Origin: Microcaldota archaeon
GTDB lineage: Archaea; Micrarchaeota; Micrarchaeia; Micrarchaeales; CABMGC01
Direction of reading: 5' to 3'
Assembly: GCA_028866995.1 (NCBI GenBank)
Contig: JAGWHD010000001.1
Coordinates: 529,030-593,029 of the forward strand
Length of the DNA stretch: 64,000 bases
The position numbers and the translations under genes were made by a program. The notes below the pieces were generated by a model that was given only the letters and a program-made list of their open reading frames with translations, had not been told where the DNA came from and ran no database searches. How positions within the stretch are numbered: the stretch's first letter is position 1; each line of letters begins with the position of its first letter. This document shows positions 334 through 44,252 of the stretch, piece after piece.

Positions 334-3300
334 ATGAGAACCAAAAATGCAAAGCGAATAGCCGCTGTAGCGGCAAGCTTACTCATGGGTCTCGCCTTCG
401 CGGGACAGGGAGTAACGGTCGGTAATATACCGATAATAAACAGCCAGGGACAACCTGTGGTGCAGATTGTGGTCGGAGGAACCTCCGCACCTAGCGACGG
501 AGTGGTCGCTGGCAACATCGCTGCAGTGATAGGCAACCTAGCGTTTACATCCACGAACGTGACCGCAACAGTCAGCGGATCAGGAGTAAACTGCGTGGTA
601 ACGACGCCTACATGCACGATATCGAACGCACAGGTCTGGCTCGGAGAGTCTGGAACAGCCGTTCCGGCAAGCTCTTATGGAATATACGCGTTAATAGGAT
701 CTGTCCTTAACCAGGCAATCCCATTGAACGTCCCTGATTCTACAAAGCAGTTGCAATCAGGAACTGGAACGCAATATGCATTCCGCCAGCTGTTGTCACT
801 ATCGATAAGCCCTGTCGCTTCGCCGTACACGGCTCTGGGATCTGCTCCTATAGGGACGACCGCATCAGCCGCTTCTAACGGAGGTGGTGCGCAGTTCACG
901 GGCTTCTCAGTAACCTCTGGTGGCTCGACATGGGACAACATACTCCAGGTAACAAACTCGAATTTCCCATCCCTTGCGAACAACTGGGGAACGAATGGAG
1001 AGAATGAGTACCTGTGGCTTACAGGATTCCCTGTATTCGACCAGGCAAGCAACATAAACCAGTTCAGGTTGCTGTCTGCAGGAGGCGCCTATCAGGCTAC
1101 CTTCAACAAGCCGATACAGAACAGGACCTCAAGCAATGGCCTGTCGATAAACGTGCCTATAGAGTTGCTAGGTCAGAACTACACCATACTCTCAATGCAG
1201 GGTGGTGCGGCCAGCAGCGTTGGCTCATCCAACACTGTAAATGGAGGTAAGGTGCAGTTGGCATCAACCTTGGTTCCTGCCCAGGTAATCTATGTCGGAC
1301 ACAACGTCACGACAGGACCTTGGACAGTGCAGCTACAGGACTTGGGTCAGCCGACATCCGGTGGTATAAGCACTGCATCAGTTGCAATATACTACAACGG
1401 GCAGCTGACAAACACGACAAGCATCTTCCCTGGCAACACCGTGCAGTTCAACTACACGGGCCACAATGTGTATGTCAACGTACAATCAACCTTCGCAGGT
1501 TTGTATGCATACCAGAAATGGGCAAAGATGCAGGTGTACTCCAACCTCCTGAACCTATCAGACGGAAAGGTCTTCAATCAGACGAATGACCCTGGCTGGT
1601 ATGTAAGGCTATATTGGACAAACACGACCAAGTCAAGCGCTGGAAACGCAGTGGCACTGCAGAGTATAGTGATATACAATGCAAGCCCTACGGACCTTGC
1701 TCCTGGACAGAGCTTCAACTTTATCCAGAACCCCAAGGCGTACAAGTTGACCTTCGTGGGAGACACGCAGGGTTCAGCGAACTACGACACAGTAACTGCA
1801 TCGACATCGGTTTCGTCATCCGTTCAGTACCAGAACCTGGGAAGCAACGGAGCAGGGCAGCCTTCGCTGTCTAACGTTACCGAGCCTGCGCAGTACCTGA
1901 CCGTCACGAGCGCGATACCTAACTCACTGACCTACTCTGGTCAGACGAGCAGCAGCGTATCGTACGACCTGACCCCGTTCGAGCTGTTCAACTACGCGAA
2001 CACGCTTGGAAACAACGGCGGCAACCAGGCATCCAATGGAGGTGCTGGCATTCAGGCCGGAACCATAGGAGGCGTGTCAAACGTGGTGCTGAACTTCATG
2101 GGTGCAAATGGACTTGGGTGGATAAACACAGCATATCCACTTACCGTAACCGTGACTGGATATACATCCAACACTGCTACGTCGACAACGTCCTCTGCGG
2201 TGACCTTCACGTCGAACACTGCAAACGCGTTGACTTCGGTCAACTTCTACAACATAACGGGCATAACCCTCTCAAGGGCCCTGCCTGGTGTTATGTCAGT
2301 AAGCGTTTACAGCAACTCGATTGTTGGAGTGCAGGCTGCGAACTCAGTGTTGCTGGCAACGTTGGCCAACGTGCCTTCACTGCCTGGTGCCATACTCTAC
2401 GGACCTCTTGCGGGTAAGACATACTACTCCGCAGTCGCAGTAAATGGAGGAAACGTGGTGTACAACCAGCAGAACGGGCAGCCTACCACGAGCTGGTACC
2501 TGAATCCTACGGCCCAAGTCGCTGGAACAGTGACCAAGGGAGGAGCACAGCAGCAGTACTTCACGTTCTCGATGAACACGCTGGCGGTGTCTACAAACAC
2601 CAATGCAGCCGGCGCGTTCGCGTTCGGAATCGTGAATTCGTCTGCAGGAGTTGGATCCTCACCGCTGTTCACGGTGAACTACACGGCGAACTTCGGTTCT
2701 AACGCAGTCGGCACAGCAAGGAACGTCACGTATGTTCCTTCTGGAGAGACTTCAGGAACCGCGTTCAACGCGAAGGTAGGCTTCAAGGGCGAAAGGGGCG
2801 GTGGACCTACGTCCATAAGCTCAAACGGCGATGCATTTTCGCTGGCAAAGCTGCCTGACCAGCTGTTGTTCACTGTCGGACCTGCTAACACGACCGCAGC
2901 CAACACGACAACGAAGCTCTATGGACCATACTCTGTCGGACAGGCAACGAACCTGGCCAACGTAACAATTGGCAAGGTCAACGCGACCTGCACTGGCGGA
3001 TCTGGAGCGTCCTCAAGCTGCACTGTGACTGGCTTGGCGAACCTGACAGCAACACCTTCGGTGACGCAGGCAGTAGTCCCTGTAGGACTCAACACTGCGA
3101 CAACGCCTCTGGTGGTGCTGGACAGCAACGCAAACCAGGCTGCGACTTTGGTCCTCGTAGGATCGAAGTACGTGAACTCGGTATCTGCACAGCTCTTCGC
3201 GCAGAACCCATCGCTCGACTCGAGCTTTGGAACAAGCTCTGTGGTTGAGCAGGCCTTCGGTGGCAACAGGATACTGGTGGCAGGATACACTGCGAACCAG

Positions 3301-3357
3301 ACTGTGCAGGCAGGCAACGAGTTCATACAGGCATTGCTCGCGGCTGCAAGCCAGTAA
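334..3357 (+). CDS. S-layer protein
   Basis: A 1,007-residue secreted protein expected to form the surface lattice of the cell. Residues 1-23 are a typical signal peptide (basic MRTKNAKR, hydrophobic core, cleavage near AFA-G). The N-terminal stretch around residues 41-74 (IVVGGTSAPSDGVVAGNIAA) matches the start of archaeal S-layer proteins of the Methanococcus type. The last ~85 residues (LVVLDSNANQAATLVLVGS...) match the S-layer C-terminal domain of that family. The middle is rich in Ser, Thr, Gly and Asn, with many N-glycosylation sequons that the AglB oligosaccharyltransferase at 27919 could modify. No C-terminal transmembrane helix is visible, so it may be held by lattice contacts or a separate anchor. 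It has its own promoter and a strong terminator, as expected for an abundant protein. Confidence 0.9.
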   Translation: MRTKNAKRIAAVAASLLMGLAFAGQGVTVGNIPIINSQGQPVVQIVVGGTSAPSDGVVAGNIAAVIGNLAFTSTNVTATVSGSGVNCVVTTPTCTISNAQVWLGESGTAVPASSYGIYALIGSVLNQAIPLNVPDSTKQLQSGTGTQYAFRQLLSLSISPVASPYTALGSAPIGTTASAASNGGGAQFTGFSVTSGGSTWDNILQVTNSNFPSLANNWGTNGENEYLWLTGFPVFDQASNINQFRLLSAGGAYQATFNKPIQNRTSSNGLSINVPIELLGQNYTILSMQGGAASSVGSSNTVNGGKVQLASTLVPAQVIYVGHNVTTGPWTVQLQDLGQPTSGGISTASVAIYYNGQLTNTTSIFPGNTVQFNYTGHNVYVNVQSTFAGLYAYQKWAKMQVYSNLLNLSDGKVFNQTNDPGWYVRLYWTNTTKSSAGNAVALQSIVIYNASPTDLAPGQSFNFIQNPKAYKLTFVGDTQGSANYDTVTASTSVSSSVQYQNLGSNGAGQPSLSNVTEPAQYLTVTSAIPNSLTYSGQTSSSVSYDLTPFELFNYANTLGNNGGNQASNGGAGIQAGTIGGVSNVVLNFMGANGLGWINTAYPLTVTVTGYTSNTATSTTSSAVTFTSNTANALTSVNFYNITGITLSRALPGVMSVSVYSNSIVGVQAANSVLLATLANVPSLPGAILYGPLAGKTYYSAVAVNGGNVVYNQQNGQPTTSWYLNPTAQVAGTVTKGGAQQQYFTFSMNTLAVSTNTNAAGAFAFGIVNSSAGVGSSPLFTVNYTANFGSNAVGTARNVTYVPSGETSGTAFNAKVGFKGERGGGPTSISSNGDAFSLAKLPDQLLFTVGPANTTAANTTTKLYGPYSVGQATNLANVTIGKVNATCTGGSGASSSCTVTGLANLTATPSVTQAVVPVGLNTATTPLVVLDSNANQAATLVLVGSKYVNSVSAQLFAQNPSLDSSFGTSSVVEQAFGGNRILVAGYTANQTVQAGNEFIQALLAAASQ

Positions 3358-27918: not shown

Positions 27919-30321
27919 ATGGACGCAAACGCAGTGGACAACGGCGGACATGCTGCACATCACGAGCATGCGCACCACGAATCCCACGCACGCGCGAAGA
28001 ACGGATGGACTGATCGCGACTGGAAGAGCATCGCAGTGTACGCGATAGCCGTCATAGCAATACTCGCTATGGCAGTCTTCATACGGTCGAGGATGCTTGG
28101 AATGTTCGGCTTCTTCGAACCCGACGGCTACTACCACTTCAGCGTCATAAGGGCAGCGATAAACAACGGCTTCGTAATCCCCAAGATACTCAGCATCTCC
28201 GGATGGCCGGTGCACGGTGCTGTGACAGAGCCGCACGGCCTCTACTGGATAACTCTGATACCCTACTTCTTCCTGAGGTTCCTCGGGGTCAGCTACTACA
28301 CCATAATGAGGATCATGCCTGTCCTGTTCGGCCTGTTGAACGTCATAGGCGCGTACTATCTCTCGAGATACATAAGCAAGGACAAGCTCTTCGGCCTGCT
28401 CGTCATGGTCCTTGTGGCCCTCAGCCTGGGAGACTCTGCGAGGACCAGCGCCACCGTTTACAGGGGGGATTCCTTTGTCACTATATTCCTTATACTTTCC
28501 CTCATACTCGCCATAAATACGATAATGCAGGCTGACAGGAGGAAGAAGCTATACCTTGCGATAGCTACTGGGTTCGTGCTGAGCCTATGCAACATAGTCT
28601 GGAACGGCGCGGCCTTCGCGTTCGCCACCATGCTCTTCGGCTTCATGCTTCTCGCATCGATAGCGTTCATACTCGGCAAAAGCGACCTGCTCAAAGGCTC
28701 AGGATATCTACTCGTAACGTTCATCGCGTGGTACCTGCTGGTGAACGCCTACACCTGGGCTCTTGGCTGGATAACCTCGGTAGAGGTGTTCAGCGGGATA
28801 GACTCGATACTGCTGCTGGCCCTTGTAGGGCTTGGGTGGCTCATGGCCTATTACGTCGACACCAACAGGCACAGGATGCCCGCTTTCCTGGGAAGCGCTG
28901 CGGGCAGGACAGTGCTATTGGCAGCCGTTGCCGTTTTCGGATTTGTGATCATAGAGGCGGTCGCGTCGTCGATAGTGTACTCGATATTCATAGGCAACGG
29001 CTTCATACCGACCACCAACTTCGGCGCAACGATAGAGGAGCTCCAGGCGCCTAGCGCCTCCTACTTCTACCAGAGCTTCGGCGTGGTGCTCGCGACAACT
29101 CCGATGACCGCGCTGATGTACCTCTCTTCATACGCGCACAACGCAAAGGTCCTCATCTGGATATTCATAATGCTCTCCATGATCCTGTACCTATTCATGC
29201 GCATAGACGATGACGGCAATGGCTTCCTCAGCGGCAGTCCATCAATCAAGTTCTCAGTGAGTGCAGCTTTCGTTCTCATCATGGCCTATCTGGGTCTTAC
29301 CTCATATCTCCAGATACATGCGATACGCTTCAATTCGCTGGTAGCCGTTCCAATAGCCCTATTCTCAGCGTATACGGTCTACTGGCTCATCGCGTATGCG
29401 AAGAAGCTAAGGAGGATATTGTACTATGCGTCTGCGGTGCCTTTGTTCATAATCCTCGCAATGCTCTCATGGCAGGCGATTGCCTATACCAGCCATCTCT
29501 ATCCTGCAGACGCCATCAACGGCGATTTCATAAGGGCTTTGCAGTGGATGAGCCTCAACACCCCTCCGAGCAGCGTCGTGCTGACGATATGGCCGGACGG
29601 CTCTGTCGTCGAAGGCATTGCCAACAGGACCAGCGTGACGGACTCAGTTGGAGCGCAGAGGAACATGACTGCTGGACCGTTCGCGACCTGGATACTGAAC
29701 CAGACTTCCGACGGGCAGTTCCTGCTGGGTAGCAGCGCAGGCAGGCCTGACTACCTGCTTGCCAGGAGCACATGGCTGCTCGAGACGAGCGGAATATTCA
29801 CCGAATCGGGGCTCAACCGCAGCCTTGCCCAGAGCTACGGCTACAGCGTGCTCAACCAGTTCGCCGAGGGAGCCAACGCAACGGACCAGATAATCAGGAG
29901 CAGCGACGGCCAGTCGCTCACTACCATCGTCGACTTCAAGAACAGGACAGATGGCACCAAGAGCGTAACCAGCGCGCTGTACTACAACGGCCAGGAGGTG
30001 CCGGCATCGTACTTCGTGCTCTACGACCAGGACACGCTCAACTACTCGATCTACAACCTGGACGAGATCAGGGGGACTCCTGGGAACGGCGACATGATAC
30101 TGCTGCTCTACTCGAATGTCCCCAGGCATGGATACTTCCTCAACGTCACCGGAACCATAGTCTTCGGCAGCGCGATAGCGCAGAGCAACATGCTCTCTTT
30201 CATATACCTATGCAACTACCACGAGTGCAGGTGGGACAACAGCGTGGCAAGCCTGCAGCTGGTCTACCACAACGAGGACACCAACATATTCAAGATAGAC
30301 TACAACTCCACAGCGCGGTGA
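27919..30321 (+). CDS. aglB: oligosaccharyltransferase AglB (STT3 family)
   Basis: An 800-residue multi-pass enzyme that moves the lipid-linked glycan onto Asn-X-Ser/Thr sites of exported proteins such as the S-layer protein. A His-rich cytoplasmic N-tail is followed by the first outer loop with the catalytic acidic motif EPDGYYH (67-73), then about 11-13 membrane helices, including the fifth-loop motif ATIEELQ that matches the TIxE type. The normally invariant WWDYG sequon-binding motif is reduced to IWPDG (557-561). The C-terminal outer domain is ~260 residues. The altered WWDYG may change sequon choice or efficiency. Confidence 0.92.
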   Translation: MDANAVDNGGHAAHHEHAHHESHARAKNGWTDRDWKSIAVYAIAVIAILAMAVFIRSRMLGMFGFFEPDGYYHFSVIRAAINNGFVIPKILSISGWPVHGAVTEPHGLYWITLIPYFFLRFLGVSYYTIMRIMPVLFGLLNVIGAYYLSRYISKDKLFGLLVMVLVALSLGDSARTSATVYRGDSFVTIFLILSLILAINTIMQADRRKKLYLAIATGFVLSLCNIVWNGAAFAFATMLFGFMLLASIAFILGKSDLLKGSGYLLVTFIAWYLLVNAYTWALGWITSVEVFSGIDSILLLALVGLGWLMAYYVDTNRHRMPAFLGSAAGRTVLLAAVAVFGFVIIEAVASSIVYSIFIGNGFIPTTNFGATIEELQAPSASYFYQSFGVVLATTPMTALMYLSSYAHNAKVLIWIFIMLSMILYLFMRIDDDGNGFLSGSPSIKFSVSAAFVLIMAYLGLTSYLQIHAIRFNSLVAVPIALFSAYTVYWLIAYAKKLRRILYYASAVPLFIILAMLSWQAIAYTSHLYPADAINGDFIRALQWMSLNTPPSSVVLTIWPDGSVVEGIANRTSVTDSVGAQRNMTAGPFATWILNQTSDGQFLLGSSAGRPDYLLARSTWLLETSGIFTESGLNRSLAQSYGYSVLNQFAEGANATDQIIRSSDGQSLTTIVDFKNRTDGTKSVTSALYYNGQEVPASYFVLYDQDTLNYSIYNLDEIRGTPGNGDMILLLYSNVPRHGYFLNVTGTIVFGSAIAQSNMLSFIYLCNYHECRWDNSVASLQLVYHNEDTNIFKIDYNSTAR

Positions 30322-30741: not shown

Positions 30742-30879
30742 ACCACAAGGATAAGGTGGCAACGAACGCTTTTAAACGTTCTGTTGGCCCAAGTCCCGAG
30801 CTTCAGGCATAAGCCCGGCGAAGCCGATGGTGGCAACGCTATCTTAAAATATGTATTATGCTATATACCAGCGAATAGC

Positions 30880-33800
30880 ATGAGGGGCAAGGGCGATAGG
30901 CGCAGGAGCGTTTTCATACTCTCTTCAATATTCGTCGTCCTCGCCCTCTACAATGTATCGACGCACCAGCTCCTCGGCGCGCAGTCCTCATACTCACCGA
31001 ACAGCACGATCCAGGACACTGGCAACGTAACGTACAACTACGGCAACGCGACCATAACCCCGCTCGTAGCATCGGGCCCGAACTACTGCGGCGCAGTATC
31101 ATGCTCGGGGGCTCCCGCATACGGAAGCGGCAAGTCATCAGTTTCAGAATCATGCTCCTTCAGCACCTGCTACGACCATGCGACCAGCACCTTCAGCAAG
31201 AGCTCGGGCTCCAGCACGGACACCTCTCCAGCAAGCAAGGTATCGAAGTACAACATCAACAACAACGGATGGCTGATAACCTGCCCTTCAAGCCCTGAGA
31301 CGCATCCGCAGGACCAGTCATGGATAGACACCGAGATATACTCGTTCATAGCCGGCAACGGCTGCCAGGCATCGACAAGCTCGCTGAAGACGACATTCCA
31401 GTTCCAGGCGACCTCATCGGCGTCGTCTTCGCAGCTTGCGACCACGCAGGTCACGCTCCAGGTCAACAACCCTGCAGACGTCGGCATACGCGAGCTCACC
31501 TTCTCGCCTCAGGTTGACGGTTTCGTATCAACGGCATTCAGCAACCTGTCATACATATTCAAGCACTTCCCCACCGAGGCGCAGAGCGTCTCCTGGTACT
31601 GGTACGGAAAGTACGCCAACTTCTTCAACGTGAACCCTGCGGATGTGCCTCCTCTGTACATAGGCCCCGTCCCTCTCACGTACACGGACCCTTCGACCCA
31701 GTGCACCTACAACTACGACTACTACAGCAAGACGGTGCTGGACAGCATCCAGAACACGTACATACCCTTCACCGAGGTGCTGCCACCAGATGTCAATTAT
31801 CCGATACAGGGAGTGCAGTCAAGCGGGCAGAGCCCTCCTTACACTGCTCCAGATTCTCCGTCGAAAACTGCAACATTCCCTGCCAACGTCTATCCATACT
31901 TCATACAGCAGTTCAACATTACGAACGCTGCAGTGCCGCCGAACAGCCTGGACTTCAACGCCACCTATGACGTATACGGGCCGTGGTCGTACTACTCTCC
32001 GTACAACTCCATCGAGCCGTTCCCGCTCGACAGCAATTCATTGCTCTACGTGGGCTACGACAGCAACCTGGTCTCGTTCATGAGGGACACCTCTGCACCT
32101 AAGGTCAACTACCACAACGCGATGCAGAGCAATACCATCGGAGCGAATACGCAGCAGCAGGCGAACATAGTGTATGGCATATCCGGATCTGGAGGCGGCT
32201 CGGTCAGCGGAGGAAGCTGCCCTAGCCAGGACTACAACGGTGATCAGGCAACTGCGCTCTCCTTCGACCAGGTAGTGGGGTGCGCGCAGCAGGCAGGCTT
32301 CTCAGGAACGGACCTTGAGATAATAGTATCCATAGCATATGCAGAGAGCTCTTTCCATCCTGGCGAATGCTACGGCGGCCAGAGCCCATGTCCTTCAGGA
32401 GTGCCGGCGGGATTGCTGCAGACCGGATCCTCAACAGGGGACACCAGCGGCTACAGCACAGGCTCCTGCCCGACAGGAGGCAGCGACTGGTGGTACAATC
32501 CAGCATGCGAGATGCAGTTCGCTTATGTGTACATCAACGATCCGGTCAACACCAACTGCCCTGGGCCAGTCACAGGACACAAGTTCTGCTACTGGCAGAC
32601 ATACGGCGACCCTGCGGCAGGCCAGCCAATAGGAAGCTACTGCAAGTACATGCCTGTAGGATATGTCGGCGACAACTGCCCTGCGGGCCAGGCACGCGAC
32701 GCTGCAGGATGGTGGAGCGGCTCAGGAGTTTCAGCATCTCCATCGCCAAGCCCATCTGCTCTAGCGAACCCTGACTCTGTAGCTGGGATAGCATCCGGAT
32801 ACGTCTTCGCTCTCATCGGTTCATTCTCCGGAACCCCTTCACAGGGCAGCCAGCAGACACAGCAGCAGTCAGGCAGCACCTCTGACATAGTGGCCGCTGC
32901 GCTCACGCAGATAGGCGTACCTTACTGCTACGGCGGAGAGACCCCAAAGGGGCAGGACCCGTTCTGCAAGAACGCTTATACCACCAGCACATCGGGAAGC
33001 TTCGACTGCTCGGGCCTGGTGCAGTGGGCGGCGCAGCAGGCAGGCTTCACACTTCAAAGGACGTCGGAGGACCAGTGGAACGAGGTGACCCACATACAGC
33101 AGTCGGACACAGTGCCTGGTGACCTAATATTCTTCGCCATATCGGGCGATCCGTCAGCGGTCCCTAACCATGTCGCAATATGCGCAAACGCAGGATGCAC
33201 CCAGATGATAGAAGCTCCGTACACCAGCCAGTACGTAAGGGAGGTGCCAATAAGCGCTGACTGCGGATCAGGATGCTCAGTGTACGGCTACGGAAGGGTA
33301 AGCGGCGCCACGCCTTCGGGCAGCGTCTCGGTGAGCACAGGATCCGGATCAGGGGAGATAGACGTGCTCAAGGTAGTCAACCACGGGTACTACAACACCA
33401 GCCAGTACCAGCCATCCTCTGTATCCTATGCCTCGTCAAGCTCCCCTACGCCGCCGTTCCCGGTGCAGTCCGCGAAGAACACCTGGGACCAGAACTGGAA
33501 GAGCTACTGGGACAACGTCATACAGCTGCAGAACGGCGAGACATATCTGGTTAGGAGCATACCGATAAGCGAGATAGCCTCCGCGATAGACCTGTCTGCC
33601 GAGAAGTCGCACATACCTTCAGGAACGAACCTCGTCTACCAGCCCTACAACATAACCGCGGACAACGCCGGCGACATCTTCGTAATAGGCGCGGTCAACG
33701 TCTTCGACAAGACATTCGGGGACAGCCCCATAATGTCTCTTCCGTTCATAGCCAGGATTACCAACTCTACCGGAGGCGGCAAGATCATCGTCACGGCGCA

Positions 33801-36800
33801 GCTGGTAATGGACTGCTACCATGGCAATCCGACTCCGATAAAGAACAACTGCCAGCCGCTGCTTACCAACGGCCATCCTGACAACATAGTCACGGCGTCG
33901 CCGATAGGCGACCTTGTCTTCATATCTGGATGGTACGACAACGGCATCCACGTGCTGTCGGGCAACAGCCTCGACTACCTGGGCAAGACCATATCGCTTG
34001 ACTACGGCAACGACCTCGGTTCTTACGGACAGAGCGGTGCGGACGTCAACATAGTGCAGTACCTGACCCGGGGCGGCCTGTACGGGATAAACGTCGATGG
34101 CAATACGCCCAACGATAACATAATGAAGCAGCTCTTCTCGTACAACAACGCCCTCACCGACGGTTCGCTAGAGGGGGGCGTGGGCATGCCTGGGGGGGCA
34201 GGCGCGAAGGCCGATTCCAATCATGCAAAGAACATGCACCACGTCCTCGGCATGACTGACGTGAACGGTTACCTCTATGTCATGGACAACTGGGTGGGCC
34301 AGCTTGGCATACACTGTCAGGGCATCCTTAGCGTCGTAACAGGGATAGACTGGTGCGCAGGCGAGACGTCTTTCGACATGCTCTCTCTACGTGTCATGAA
34401 CTCAACAGGCGTTGACCTCCCGATAAACCCAACGCAGTTCAACGACATAGGGTATCCAGCAGGCAAGAGCAGCACCAACGGCTGCTCCGGCAGCAGCTAC
34501 CACTGCATACAGCAGTTCCAGATTCCTCCGTCAACATACAGCTATTACCCTCCTTACGGATGGGTGCTGTCGGCGAACATCTCAAGGAAGGGGACCAACC
34601 TCAACCTCTGCAGCGGCACGTTCAAGGACGGCAGGTGCGCGCTTCCAGACGCCTCAGAGTATACCGGATACTTCATGCCTCTCGGCCCGCATCTCAACAG
34701 CTGGCAGTCGCGCTGCAAGGGTGTACAGGTGTTCGGCACTTGCTTCGGCGTCCGTGTAGCAAGCCCAAGGCCCATACTCGGTGCTAGCTTCTCAACCTCA
34801 TTCAACGATACCATCGCACTGCTTCTTCCAGATCCGAACCTGATTAACAGCGGAACAGCACACAAATACGGCGAGATGCTGCTGGCGCAGTTCAATCCCG
34901 AGAACTACACGACGGTCATGGGCCCTGGAGGTCCTCCCAAGCTCGCATACGCGTGCTATACCGATGCGCAGGACGAATCATTGGGCGCATCGGGCAACAG
35001 CAACCCTCTATCGTGCTTCTACGACCAGCAGATGCGGAAGATAACCGGGCCGATATACCTCATGGAGAACCCGTTCAGGTACACTGAGGGCATAGGCTCC
35101 ACGACGACGCTGACGCTTGAGGAGTACTACGGCTCTGCCTTCTCAGGAACGGCAGGGTTCCCTTCTGCGCTCCAGAACCCTTCCCAGAACCCCGGGGCCG
35201 CTGAGCAGTACATAAACCAGAACCTGAACAAGTACGTCTCCAACCTGCCGCAGACGATCAACGGAGCAGCATCCGCTGCGCCAAGCCAGCAGCCGACAGC
35301 AACAACCGCGGCTCAGGCAACAGCTATAAACGCAATGATATACGGCTACCTGGAGGTTCCGTTCAACTATACGTACACTGTATCGGACACGTACCAGACC
35401 ACTGGTAACAGTGCCTCCAGCTGCCAACCGCCGCAGCACGACAAGACGACATACTATGTCACGTACACCTCTGCAACCCAGGATGTCAAGTCCAAGCCCC
35501 TCTCTGCTGGGGTCGAGGCCGGAGACACGTACCTCAAGTACTTCAGCAACTACTCGTTCTACATCCCGAACATAAGCTCGATAACGCTGCCGCCTACGAT
35601 AATCACTGACATACTCACAAACAGGCTGTTCGGCGACATATACGTCAACCAGACGCTAAACCACCTCACCAACCAGCAGGAAATAGTCAACGCGATAATG
35701 AGCGACAACTACCAGCAGAACACCTACACGCAGGGACAGTACCCCGGATTCAGCAACGCAATCTCCTCTGCAGTGCTTCCTCCATGCGTCGGCGCGAAGT
35801 GCGCTATACAGGCGGATACCGGCAAGACGGCATCAGGAAAGGGAGGGCTCCTGACAACATTCGGCTACGTGCCGCAGAGCACAGACACCATCGCGGCGCT
35901 CTTCACATGGTACAAGCAGATGGTCAAGAGCTCGCAGGTAACGCTTGAATACCAGGGGCAGGCGTCAAACGCGCAGCAGAGCGTCTTCGGCTACAGGAGG
36001 ATGGTGTACGTATTCAAGGACAGGTTCGACAACAGCATCTTCGCTACCATCGACGCAGACACCGCCAATATCACTCAGATAAACCTTACGATAACACCGG
36101 TCGTCGATGCGCACAACGCGAACCTGACAACGGTGTACATAAACGGGACCGCTTTCTGGACACCGCCACTCTCCACGCAGAACGTGCCGCTGAAGAACGG
36201 CAACATATACGTGTACTACGCGCAGAACCTCAACTTCGTCGATTACAATCCTACTCTGACATACCAGTACAGCCCCAATGGCGGGGTCAATGGGAAGGAG
36301 AACGCGCAGCTATGCGCCTTCGGCGACAATACGACGCACCCTGACCAGGTACCCACCGACTGCACCCTCGCGAACCCGATATGGCAGGGAAGGTCCCAGA
36401 ACGCAGGCATAATCACCTACCATCCTTCTTACAACGCCATGGGGCAGTGCGACCCTGCGCCCAAGAGCCTCCTGCAGCCGCAGAAGCTGAACTGCAACAT
36501 ATACGGCAACGACGGGAACAGCAACATACCCGCTTTATGCCCTGTGACCGGGTCATCGTACCAGCAGTACTGCGTGCCGCTGTACACTAACGGCACGGGC
36601 TTCTGCACAAGCGAGGTGGGGCTCATGGGCATAGCCAAGACGACTTCCAACGGCAAGTTCTCTCTCAAGGAGCCTGTGTGCGGATACGGCGGCGCGTCGG
36701 CGGGGGTCAGCTACTACGGCGCCCCATCCCCAGAGCCGATAACAGTGCGCCAGTCAGACCTGCTCAACTCGTCAGATCCCGGATCCAGCTTCAGGCTCAG

Positions 36801-36981
36801 CTTCCAGGCGTTCAACTACACATGGACGCCGCAGGGAGCGAGCAAGAGCTTCCAGATAGGCGAGCTGCTGCTGTCGTTCGGCGACCTCAATGCCGCATAC
36901 CTTGCTGCAGGAGCCGCGATGGTCATTGCCCTGATGTTTATAAGGCAGAGCAGGCCAAGGGGCGTAAAAAGGAGAGCCTGA
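30880..36981 (+). CDS. giant surface protein with lysozyme-like and NlpC/P60 domains
   Basis: A 2,033-residue secreted protein. A basic start and signal/anchor helix (RRRSVFILSSIFVVLALYN) are followed by ~420 residues of Ser/Tyr/Asn-rich sequence. Residues about 447-605 look like a Cys-rich soluble lytic transglycosylase/lysozyme domain, with the candidate catalytic Glu489 in AYAESSFHPG and GLLQ further on. Residues about 667-807 are an NlpC/P60 cysteine peptidase, with Cys710 in FDCSGLVQWA and His764 in PNHVAICA. About 1,200 beta-rich residues follow, then one C-terminal helix (about 2003-2022) and a basic tail, so the protein is held in the membrane with its bulk outside. The frame extends up to a TTG at 30784, but a TATA box at 30843-30855 predicts a leaderless message at the ATG 30880. 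Confidence 0.85.
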   Translation: MRGKGDRRRSVFILSSIFVVLALYNVSTHQLLGAQSSYSPNSTIQDTGNVTYNYGNATITPLVASGPNYCGAVSCSGAPAYGSGKSSVSESCSFSTCYDHATSTFSKSSGSSTDTSPASKVSKYNINNNGWLITCPSSPETHPQDQSWIDTEIYSFIAGNGCQASTSSLKTTFQFQATSSASSSQLATTQVTLQVNNPADVGIRELTFSPQVDGFVSTAFSNLSYIFKHFPTEAQSVSWYWYGKYANFFNVNPADVPPLYIGPVPLTYTDPSTQCTYNYDYYSKTVLDSIQNTYIPFTEVLPPDVNYPIQGVQSSGQSPPYTAPDSPSKTATFPANVYPYFIQQFNITNAAVPPNSLDFNATYDVYGPWSYYSPYNSIEPFPLDSNSLLYVGYDSNLVSFMRDTSAPKVNYHNAMQSNTIGANTQQQANIVYGISGSGGGSVSGGSCPSQDYNGDQATALSFDQVVGCAQQAGFSGTDLEIIVSIAYAESSFHPGECYGGQSPCPSGVPAGLLQTGSSTGDTSGYSTGSCPTGGSDWWYNPACEMQFAYVYINDPVNTNCPGPVTGHKFCYWQTYGDPAAGQPIGSYCKYMPVGYVGDNCPAGQARDAAGWWSGSGVSASPSPSPSALANPDSVAGIASGYVFALIGSFSGTPSQGSQQTQQQSGSTSDIVAAALTQIGVPYCYGGETPKGQDPFCKNAYTTSTSGSFDCSGLVQWAAQQAGFTLQRTSEDQWNEVTHIQQSDTVPGDLIFFAISGDPSAVPNHVAICANAGCTQMIEAPYTSQYVREVPISADCGSGCSVYGYGRVSGATPSGSVSVSTGSGSGEIDVLKVVNHGYYNTSQYQPSSVSYASSSSPTPPFPVQSAKNTWDQNWKSYWDNVIQLQNGETYLVRSIPISEIASAIDLSAEKSHIPSGTNLVYQPYNITADNAGDIFVIGAVNVFDKTFGDSPIMSLPFIARITNSTGGGKIIVTAQLVMDCYHGNPTPIKNNCQPLLTNGHPDNIVTASPIGDLVFISGWYDNGIHVLSGNSLDYLGKTISLDYGNDLGSYGQSGADVNIVQYLTRGGLYGINVDGNTPNDNIMKQLFSYNNALTDGSLEGGVGMPGGAGAKADSNHAKNMHHVLGMTDVNGYLYVMDNWVGQLGIHCQGILSVVTGIDWCAGETSFDMLSLRVMNSTGVDLPINPTQFNDIGYPAGKSSTNGCSGSSYHCIQQFQIPPSTYSYYPPYGWVLSANISRKGTNLNLCSGTFKDGRCALPDASEYTGYFMPLGPHLNSWQSRCKGVQVFGTCFGVRVASPRPILGASFSTSFNDTIALLLPDPNLINSGTAHKYGEMLLAQFNPENYTTVMGPGGPPKLAYACYTDAQDESLGASGNSNPLSCFYDQQMRKITGPIYLMENPFRYTEGIGSTTTLTLEEYYGSAFSGTAGFPSALQNPSQNPGAAEQYINQNLNKYVSNLPQTINGAASAAPSQQPTATTAAQATAINAMIYGYLEVPFNYTYTVSDTYQTTGNSASSCQPPQHDKTTYYVTYTSATQDVKSKPLSAGVEAGDTYLKYFSNYSFYIPNISSITLPPTIITDILTNRLFGDIYVNQTLNHLTNQQEIVNAIMSDNYQQNTYTQGQYPGFSNAISSAVLPPCVGAKCAIQADTGKTASGKGGLLTTFGYVPQSTDTIAALFTWYKQMVKSSQVTLEYQGQASNAQQSVFGYRRMVYVFKDRFDNSIFATIDADTANITQINLTITPVVDAHNANLTTVYINGTAFWTPPLSTQNVPLKNGNIYVYYAQNLNFVDYNPTLTYQYSPNGGVNGKENAQLCAFGDNTTHPDQVPTDCTLANPIWQGRSQNAGIITYHPSYNAMGQCDPAPKSLLQPQKLNCNIYGNDGNSNIPALCPVTGSSYQQYCVPLYTNGTGFCTSEVGLMGIAKTTSNGKFSLKEPVCGYGGASAGVSYYGAPSPEPITVRQSDLLNSSDPGSSFRLSFQAFNYTWTPQGASKSFQIGELLLSFGDLNAAYLAAGAAMVIALMFIRQSRPRGVKRRA

Positions 36982-43097: not shown

Positions 43098-44252
43098 ATG
43101 GCGCAGAAGGACGGGAAGCAGGGATCACATCTAATGAGATACGCTCTTGTGGTAGTCCTCGCCCTCGCCATTATGGCTGCCTATCTCCTTACACAAAACA
43201 GACCGCAACCATCTACCACCACTACAACCAGCACCGCCACTACTATAATCAGCTACGTGACGACTGCTTACGTTAACAACACCTCGACCATTCCCACCAC
43301 GACGGTTCCGCAGCTCTCCAACAATGTATACTGCATAGGCGGCTACAACGGCACCAGCGGCAACGCCACCGGCTCAGCATTCTATGCCACACTGTCGCAA
43401 GGCGGGATCTCCAATTGGTCCGAAACACTCGGCTATCCGATCAGCATATCGAGGTCTTCGTGCGTGCAGTACGGATCCACAATATACTGCGTAGGCGGCC
43501 TCCAGGAACTGGGCCTTGGGGAATCTGCCACTATCAGCGCGACATACTACCTTAACCTGCCTCTTGGCAACCTCAGCATATGGAACTACGCGACCCCGTA
43601 TCCGCAACAGGTATACTATCCTTCGTGCGTGACCTCAAACGGAATGATATACTGCATAAGCGGGGTGAATGCGACCAATGCCACTGTCCTGGACTACTAC
43701 GCGGCGCTGAACTCCAGCGGCACGCTCGATTGGCATAATACCAGCCCTTATCCACTGGGCTCTTACGCGCAGTCGTGCTCAGCGTCTAACGGTTTCGTCT
43801 ACTGCGTTGGAGGATACCTCAGCAACAACGCCAACGCCACGAACTATGCGTACTACGCAGCGCTCAACGGCTCCGGCATAGGCCAATGGAAGAAGACAGC
43901 GTCGTACCCGGTCGGTGTCGTCAGGCCCGCATGCGTGATAAGCAACGGCTACATATACTGCGTCGGCAACAGCCTGATTGTAGGTGCCGGCAACAGCTCA
44001 TACTACGCTCCGGTATCCGCCTCCGGCATAGGAAACTGGATGAAAACGACAGGCTATCCTTTGGCGATTGGAGGCACGTACAGCTGCGTCTCCAAGGATG
44101 GCATCATGTACTGCACCGGCGGTGGCGGCCAGTTCGGCCCTGAGACCAATGCTACCTACTACGCGCAGCTCTCATCATCTGGAATAGGCAAGTGGCATCA
44201 GGCATCGCCATACCCCATGCCCATCGCGGCCCACTCATGCGTAAGCGCCTGA
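43098..44252 (+). CDS. surface protein with Kelch-like repeats
   Basis: A 384-residue type II membrane protein: short cytoplasmic start, one helix (about 14-32), a Thr-rich glycosylation-prone stalk (about 37-73), then six repeats of ~50 residues. Each repeat has a Ser/Ala-Cys-Val start and an (I/V)YC(V/I)GG end, which resembles a six-bladed Kelch beta-propeller with a Cys pair added per blade, probably as disulfides. N-glycosylation sequons are frequent. Probably an adhesion or recognition protein. Confidence 0.8.
   Translation: MAQKDGKQGSHLMRYALVVVLALAIMAAYLLTQNRPQPSTTTTTSTATTIISYVTTAYVNNTSTIPTTTVPQLSNNVYCIGGYNGTSGNATGSAFYATLSQGGISNWSETLGYPISISRSSCVQYGSTIYCVGGLQELGLGESATISATYYLNLPLGNLSIWNYATPYPQQVYYPSCVTSNGMIYCISGVNATNATVLDYYAALNSSGTLDWHNTSPYPLGSYAQSCSASNGFVYCVGGYLSNNANATNYAYYAALNGSGIGQWKKTASYPVGVVRPACVISNGYIYCVGNSLIVGAGNSSYYAPVSASGIGNWMKTTGYPLAIGGTYSCVSKDGIMYCTGGGGQFGPETNATYYAQLSSSGIGKWHQASPYPMPIAAHSCVSA

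What the first reader, a model, noticed from the sequence alone, without database searches (positions are those of the whole stretch)
30880..36981. Giant archaeal surface protein combining a lysozyme-like and an NlpC/P60 domain
Seen: Glu489 in a transglycosylase-like segment and Cys710/His764 of an NlpC/P60 peptidase in one membrane-anchored ~2,000-residue protein. Known: both families usually cut peptidoglycan, which archaea of this type lack; some archaea are reported to make peptidoglycan hydrolases that act on bacteria. Inference: it may attack or feed on bacteria, open a partner cell's envelope, or have been retargeted to host glycoproteins.
Basis: partly seen in the sequence, partly recalled or inferred. 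Interest (0 to 1): 0.8.

Follow-up and report, generated by a model that had tools for sequence, protein, structure and literature searches.

The report
Swappable wall-cutting enzymes on archaeal surface protein
A giant cell-surface protein shared by a group of tiny archaea (Micrarchaeota) has two loops into which different lineages have plugged different bacterial-cell-wall-cutting enzymes, which suggests that archaea with no such wall of their own breach, feed on or fight bacteria.

Summary
ORF 30880-36981 encodes a 2033-residue, two-TM protein with an NlpC/P60 domain (Pfam E=1.7e-16; C710/H764) and a divergent C-type-lysozyme-like domain (profile vs PDB E=3.5e-4; E489 invariant in 13/13 relatives). 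The genome is a Micrarchaeota MAG with no Mur ligases or transpeptidases.

The hydrolases are cargo inserted in two loops of one propeller blade. Most relatives have only short linkers there. Others carry SLT_3-like, SLT, phage-tail-lysozyme, NlpC/P60 or M23-like domains, singly or combined. Within the two sites, glycan-cutters sit only in site A and peptide-cutters mostly in site B. Between sister species, the enzyme domains are the most conserved parts (87% and 81% identity, versus 60-77% for scaffold).

Best explanation: a contact-dependent peptidoglycan-degrading arm used on bacteria as prey, rivals or partners. Structure, conservation and turnover are shown. Enzymatic activity, substrate and purpose are inferred. 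Giant DPANN transglycosylase proteins and bactericidal archaeal peptidoglycan hydrolases are already published; the swappable two-site scaffold in Micrarchaeota is the new part.

The parts
30880..36981 (+). CDS of the giant surface protein, 2033 aa from ATG 30880 (in-frame TTG at 30784 gives 2065 aa)
   Evidence: family found in 44 of 60 relatives
30907..30963 (+). N-terminal hydrophobic segment, residues 10-28 (signal/anchor)
31057..32079 (+). Scaffold N-terminal region, residues 60-400, beta-rich in the model of a short relative
32080..32772 (+). Insertion site A, residues 401-631; a linker of about 30-60 residues in most relatives
32218..32691 (+). Lysozyme-like (SLT_3-like) domain, residues 447-604, 10 Cys
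32344..32346 (+). Glu489, predicted catalytic acid, aligned with the C-type lysozyme Glu
   Evidence: invariant in 13/13 domains; aligned; position
32770..32820 (+). Propeller strand separating sites A and B (PDSVAGIASGYVFALIG, residues 631-647)
32821..33351 (+). Insertion site B, residues 648-824; a short hairpin turn in most relatives
32887..33306 (+). NlpC/P60 domain, residues 670-809
   Evidence: PF00877 E=1.7e-16; RipA-type relatives in PDB, best E=1.6e-11
33007..33009 (+). Cys710, predicted nucleophile (FDCSGL)
33169..33171 (+). His764, predicted catalytic His (PNHVAIC)
33352..34479 (+). Scaffold from site B to residue 1200; beta-propeller in the model of a relative
35377..36879 (+). Conserved Cys-containing C-terminal scaffold region, residues 1500-2000
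   Evidence: invariant Cys columns among 36 relatives
36886..36942 (+). C-terminal hydrophobic segment, residues 2003-2021, followed by a basic tail
27919..30321 (+). Upstream STT3/AglB-like oligosaccharyltransferase (own reading; no Pfam hit), often the neighbour of the giant gene in relatives; context, not part of the device

Best explanation
A conserved, membrane-anchored, beta-propeller surface protein of the window's order of Micrarchaeota serves as a holder for interchangeable peptidoglycan hydrolases. In this species site A holds a lysozyme-type muramidase and site B an NlpC/P60 endopeptidase, so glycan strands and stem peptides are cut side by side. The archaeon, which has no peptidoglycan, most likely uses the arm on contact with bacterial walls, either to lyse or feed on neighbours and rivals or to open a partner cell. 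Shown: scaffold, two sites, catalytic residues, selection on the enzyme domains, turnover of cargo, lack of the tested own-wall genes. Inferred: enzymatic activity, peptidoglycan as substrate, bacteria as target, benefit.
For: (1) Several peptidoglycan-cutting families recur on one scaffold: NlpC/P60 (E=1.7e-16), SLT PF01464 (E=3.4e-11), phage tail lysozyme PF18013 (E=3e-15), SLT_3 (above cut-off in L056), M23-like. Their common substrate is peptidoglycan. (2) Catalytic residues are conserved: Glu 13/13, Cys/His 5/6. (3) Between the window protein and its congener, lysozyme-like 87% (dN/dS 0.056) and NlpC 81% (0.10) are the most conserved parts; scaffold 60-77% (0.13-0.24); linkers 61-64%. In the L042/L113 pair the SLT domain is 98% vs 85-88%. 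(4) Both insertion points map to loops of one blade in a propeller model (pTM 0.71; leading Foldseek matches are beta-propellers). (5) The genome lacks Mur ligase and transpeptidase families. (6) The nearest plasmid homologues of the NlpC domain include actinobacterial lytic transglycosylase/C40 fusions, the same enzyme pairing. (7) Precedent: archaeal peptidoglycan hydrolases kill bacteria (PMC12352652).
Against: No activity, expression or localisation data. The cultured Micrarchaeota partner found in the literature is an archaeon (Cuniculiplasma, PMC5498576). No recognised cell-wall-binding domain was found in this protein. The M23-like domains in relatives lack the Zn-ligand His residues, and one NlpC copy (L138, second) has lost Cys and His, so some cargo may bind rather than cut. 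Thiol chemistry at low pH is unfavourable if the habitat is acidic (own knowledge). Most scaffold members carry no hydrolase, so attack on walls cannot be the scaffold's core function. dS is near saturation, so the dN/dS values are approximate.
Confidence: 0.6

Rival explanations
1. The domains were retargeted to the archaeal host or partner envelope (glycoproteins, S-layer glycans) and open the host cell during episymbiosis.
For: A cultured Micrarchaeota member lives with an archaeon (PMC5498576). NlpC/P60 and lysozyme folds can in principle act on other peptides and glycans.
Against: Several unrelated peptidoglycan-cutting families would all have to be retargeted. Catalytic motifs stay canonical.
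Confidence: 0.12
2. The inserts act as peptidoglycan- or glycan-binding adhesion modules; catalysis is secondary or lost.
For: M23-like domains without Zn-ligand His, a dead second NlpC in L138, and a scaffold with adhesin-like PKD inserts in other members.
Against: E489, C710 and H764 are retained, and the enzyme domains are under stronger purifying selection than the scaffold.
Confidence: 0.13
3. Nutrient scavenging: the arm releases muropeptides from dead bacteria rather than attacking live cells.
For: Small genome; an amino-acid permease lies in the window.
Against: No recycling or uptake pathway was tested. Scavenging would not by itself require surface tethering.
Confidence: 0.15

Closest known systems
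Large murein-like lytic transglycosylase proteins of Pacearchaeota/Woesearchaeota (fam00969, PMC8204110)
   Same: Giant extracellular DPANN protein carrying a peptidoglycan-cutting domain, proposed to act on bacterial walls
   Different: Different phylum; the passages read name one domain type; homology of the scaffolds was not testable here
Bactericidal archaeal peptidoglycan hydrolases, e.g. Woldo/Danwoldo (PMC12352652)
   Same: Archaeal hydrolase with a bacterial-type catalytic domain, inferred or shown to act on bacteria
   Different: Those are secreted proteins defined by a catalytic plus a cell-wall-binding domain; this one is membrane-tethered, has no known binding domain and would fail that survey's definition
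Bifunctional lytic transglycosylase/C40 peptidases of actinobacterial plasmids; CwlT-type conjugation hydrolases
   Same: Glycan-cutting domain followed by NlpC/P60; NlpC about 40% identical
   Different: Small bacterial proteins; the lysozyme-like domain here is of another family (SLT_3/C-type-like; a relative of it had no plasmid hit)
SPEARE proteins of Nanohaloarchaeota (PMC6642349)
   Same: Giant anchored DPANN surface protein with enzymatic domains
   Different: SPEARE has serine protease, laminin-G and an intracellular restriction-enzyme portion; only a short basic tail follows the C-terminal hydrophobic segment here

Membership tests
NlpC/P60 (Pfam PF00877) | Profile match above curated cut-off | tested here: met
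   60.6 bits vs cut-off 23
NlpC/P60 (Pfam PF00877) | Catalytic Cys and His | tested here: met
   C710 and H764 aligned and conserved in 5 of 6 giant-protein copies
NlpC/P60 (Pfam PF00877) | Endopeptidase activity on peptidoglycan stem peptide | not testable with these tools
   no assay
Lysozyme-like SLT_3 (PF18896) | Profile match above curated cut-off | tested here: not met
   15.6-18.2 bits vs 27 in the window; a relative, L056, passes at 29.4
Lysozyme superfamily | Homology with catalytic Glu in register | tested here: met
   13-sequence profile to C-type lysozyme, E=3.5e-4, Glu aligned; Glu invariant 13/13
Lysozyme superfamily | Predicted fold matches | tested here: inconclusive
   Core pLDDT 70-88; C-type lysozymes rank 1 and 3 among PDB hits at E=3.7 and 5.3
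Modular archaeal peptidoglycan hydrolase as defined in PMC12352652 | At least one catalytic plus one cell-wall-binding Pfam domain | tested here: not met
   Only PF00877 and sub-threshold PF18896 found
Beta-propeller scaffold | Fold | tested here: met
   Model of a short relative, pTM 0.71; 33 PDB matches at E<=0.001, the leading ones propellers
SPEARE | Intracellular type III restriction-enzyme domain and laminin-G | tested here: not met
   No such Pfam hits; only a short tail after residue 2021
Pacearchaeota/Woesearchaeota fam00969 | Shared scaffold homology | not tested

The most novel reading that the evidence does not exclude
A dedicated, evolvable wall-breaching device: an archaeal lineage keeps one propeller scaffold with two enzyme ports, one for glycan-cutters and one mainly for peptide-cutters, and re-arms it by swapping bacterial or phage hydrolase cassettes to match bacterial prey or bacterial hosts. 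This would imply that part of the Micrarchaeota live on bacteria.
Probability: 0.3. Interest if true: 0.85.

Novelty: new variant of a known kind. Interest (0 to 1): 0.64.

Why it matters
Which partners DPANN archaea use, and how they touch them, is an open question. A surface protein that exchanges wall-cutting enzymes points to bacteria as targets in a phylum whose cultured member grows with another archaeon. It also makes the question directly testable with two soluble domains.

Tried and rejected
Single-sequence genome-contig scan with the full protein: no hits; replaced by a C-terminal family alignment. Structure-based confirmation of the lysozyme fold: weak, not relied on. Contamination or chimera: rejected, since the gene sits on a 727 kb contig beside archaeal housekeeping genes (topoisomerase, LonB, RFC, aRF1) and has an intact orthologue in a congener. 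Hydrolase pair as a general trait of the family: rejected, most relatives lack it. Independent bacterial origins for each NlpC copy: not supported, as the giant-protein copies form one clade (bootstrap 95 / SH-aLRT 94) with two separate NlpC proteins of the same family of genomes, so one acquisition followed by shuffling or loss is simpler; that tree is short and some of its rows are overlapping fragments of one protein. Plasmid relatives of the lysozyme-like, M23-like and unknown site-B domains: none found for the copies tried (the coordinates given for the site-B domain were estimated, so that negative is weak). PDB relatives of the unknown site-A domain: none (coordinates likewise estimated). 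L133 is an extreme long branch (aligns poorly) and was not used for inference.

Full report
Observation. The ORF at 30880-36981 (+) encodes 2033 residues from ATG 30880. Pfam finds NlpC/P60 at residues 679-787 (E=1.7e-16) and a sub-threshold SLT_3 match at 468-514. The named residues are at the named positions: E489, C710, H764. Hydrophobic segments lie at residues 10-28 and 2003-2021, with 47 Cys and 26 N-glycosylation sequons, consistent with an exported protein. The genome (934 kb, 96% complete) has no other NlpC/P60, no SLT hit, no Mur ligase and no transpeptidase. Relatives carrying the same protein are named Candidatus Micrarchaeota; a few records are labelled Marsarchaeota, probably by mislabelling.

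Lysozyme-like domain. A profile of 13 related domains hits C-type lysozymes in the PDB (best E=3.5e-4) with the catalytic Glu aligned. Glu489 is invariant in all 13, as are several Cys. AF2 gave a modest model (core pLDDT 70-88), and C-type lysozymes ranked first and third among its PDB matches without significance. I treat lysozyme homology as likely and the exact subfamily as open.

Scaffold. The protein is found in 44 of 60 relatives and, by a C-terminal profile, in 109 of 301 Micrarchaeota genomes. Nearly all of these lie in two families of the window's order, with weak matches in one other family, generally one locus per genome. Upstream of the gene in several relatives lie the same genes as here: topoisomerase I, a methyltransferase and an STT3-like protein. 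A short relative (L086) was modelled at pLDDT 68.6, pTM 0.71. Leading Foldseek matches are beta-propellers, with 33 hits at E<=0.001.

Two insertion sites. In the alignment of full-length relatives the hydrolase segment (window residues 401-824) is an insert. Most members have a linker of about 30-60 residues plus a short hairpin there. In the model these are a disordered loop (site A, model residues 322-352) and the next hairpin turn (site B, 364-367) of one blade. Cargo found across 89 distinct members, some of them truncated: SLT_3-like + NlpC (window, L032, L136); SLT_3-like alone (L039, L040, L082, L134, L056, L132); SLT_3-like + M23-like (L033, L075); SLT_3-like + SLT + M23-like (L034); phage tail lysozyme + unknown (L036, L089); phage tail lysozyme + SLT_3-like + M23-like (L083); SLT (L042, L113); two SLT_3-like + NlpC + unknown (L043); SLT_3-like + unknown (L139); two NlpC (L138); unknown domains only (L035, L037, L137, L135); unknown + M23-like (L096). 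28 of 89 members carry one of these domains; 24 carry a recognisable hydrolase type. Three copies (L118, L133, L143) lie outside the two sites. Within the two sites, glycan-cutters are only in site A. Peptide-type domains are in site B in most cases and in site A in L043, L075 and L138 (some hinges were read by eye). Of the large inserts elsewhere in the scaffold that were scanned, those with a Pfam match had PKD domains or DUF445, not hydrolases.

Turnover and selection. On a scaffold tree built without the insert, minimum state changes were 11 for SLT_3-like, 4 for NlpC, 4 for M23-like and 3 for phage tail lysozyme; these counts cannot separate gain from loss, and many deep forks are unresolved. 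The NlpC copies form one clade with separate NlpC proteins from two genomes of the same family, nearer to actinobacterial plasmid and phage enzymes than to NlpC of other Micrarchaeota. Between the window protein and its congener the lysozyme-like (87%) and NlpC (81%) domains are more conserved than the scaffold (60-77%) and the linkers (61-64%). The SLT pair L042/L113 shows the same; the unknown domain of L035/L037 does not.

Mechanism. The common denominator of the cargo is peptidoglycan, which the archaeon does not make. The likeliest working is a tethered pair of enzymes that cut glycan and peptide of a bacterial wall at contact. Activity, target and benefit remain inferred. Some cargo may bind rather than cut: the M23-like domains lack the His ligands and match LytM only weakly (E=0.008).

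Relation to known work. Giant DPANN proteins with a murein transglycosylase domain were reported in Pacearchaeota and Woesearchaeota, with the suggestion of bacterial hosts (PMC8204110). Peptidoglycan degradation was proposed for 'vampiristic' Woesearchaeota (PMC9723730). Archaeal peptidoglycan hydrolases kill bacteria (PMC12352652), but that survey required a cell-wall-binding domain, so a protein like this would be missed. Mia14, an ARMAN-2-related organism, has beta-propeller and PKD surface proteins and an archaeal host (PMC5498576). I found no paper describing hydrolases on this Micrarchaeota scaffold in the held library; subscription papers and preprints were not searched.

Verdict. Real, well supported as architecture, moderately supported as function, and a new variant of a known kind.

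Noticed in passing
L162 (G299:C65), 935-aa frame: A protein of another Micrarchaeota family carries M23 (E=5.8e-20), NlpC/P60 (1.9e-23) and Amidase_3 (1.3e-15) domains in one chain, with a possible glucosaminidase-like segment: a multi-enzyme wall-degrading archaeal protein.
   Followed up: partly
L145, L146, L147, L155, L162: NlpC/P60 proteins of other Micrarchaeota families appear to share a different N-terminal region (read by eye), a possible second, unrelated hydrolase carrier.
   Followed up: no
L148 (G183:C6) and L164 (G205:C24): Separate small NlpC/P60 proteins in relatives group with the NlpC domains of the giants, possible intermediates in cassette shuffling.
   Followed up: partly
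L138 residues 43-193 and 268-419: Tandem NlpC copies, the second with Cys and His replaced (FDPSGL, PSQEGIC): a decaying duplicate or a binding module.
   Followed up: partly
L033, L034, L075, L083, L096: M23-like domains in which the Zn-ligand His positions read Asp/Glu or other residues; function unclear.
   Followed up: partly
window 334-3357 (+): 1007-aa protein with an S-layer outer domain (PF05124, E=2.7e-18).
   Followed up: no
window 43098-44252 (+): Kelch-repeat protein whose homologues lie near the giant gene in six relatives, partly on the opposite strand.
   Followed up: no
phylum-wide (301 genomes): SLT transglycosylase domains occur in 58 of 301 Micrarchaeota genomes and NlpC/P60 in 19 of 301.
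   Followed up: partly
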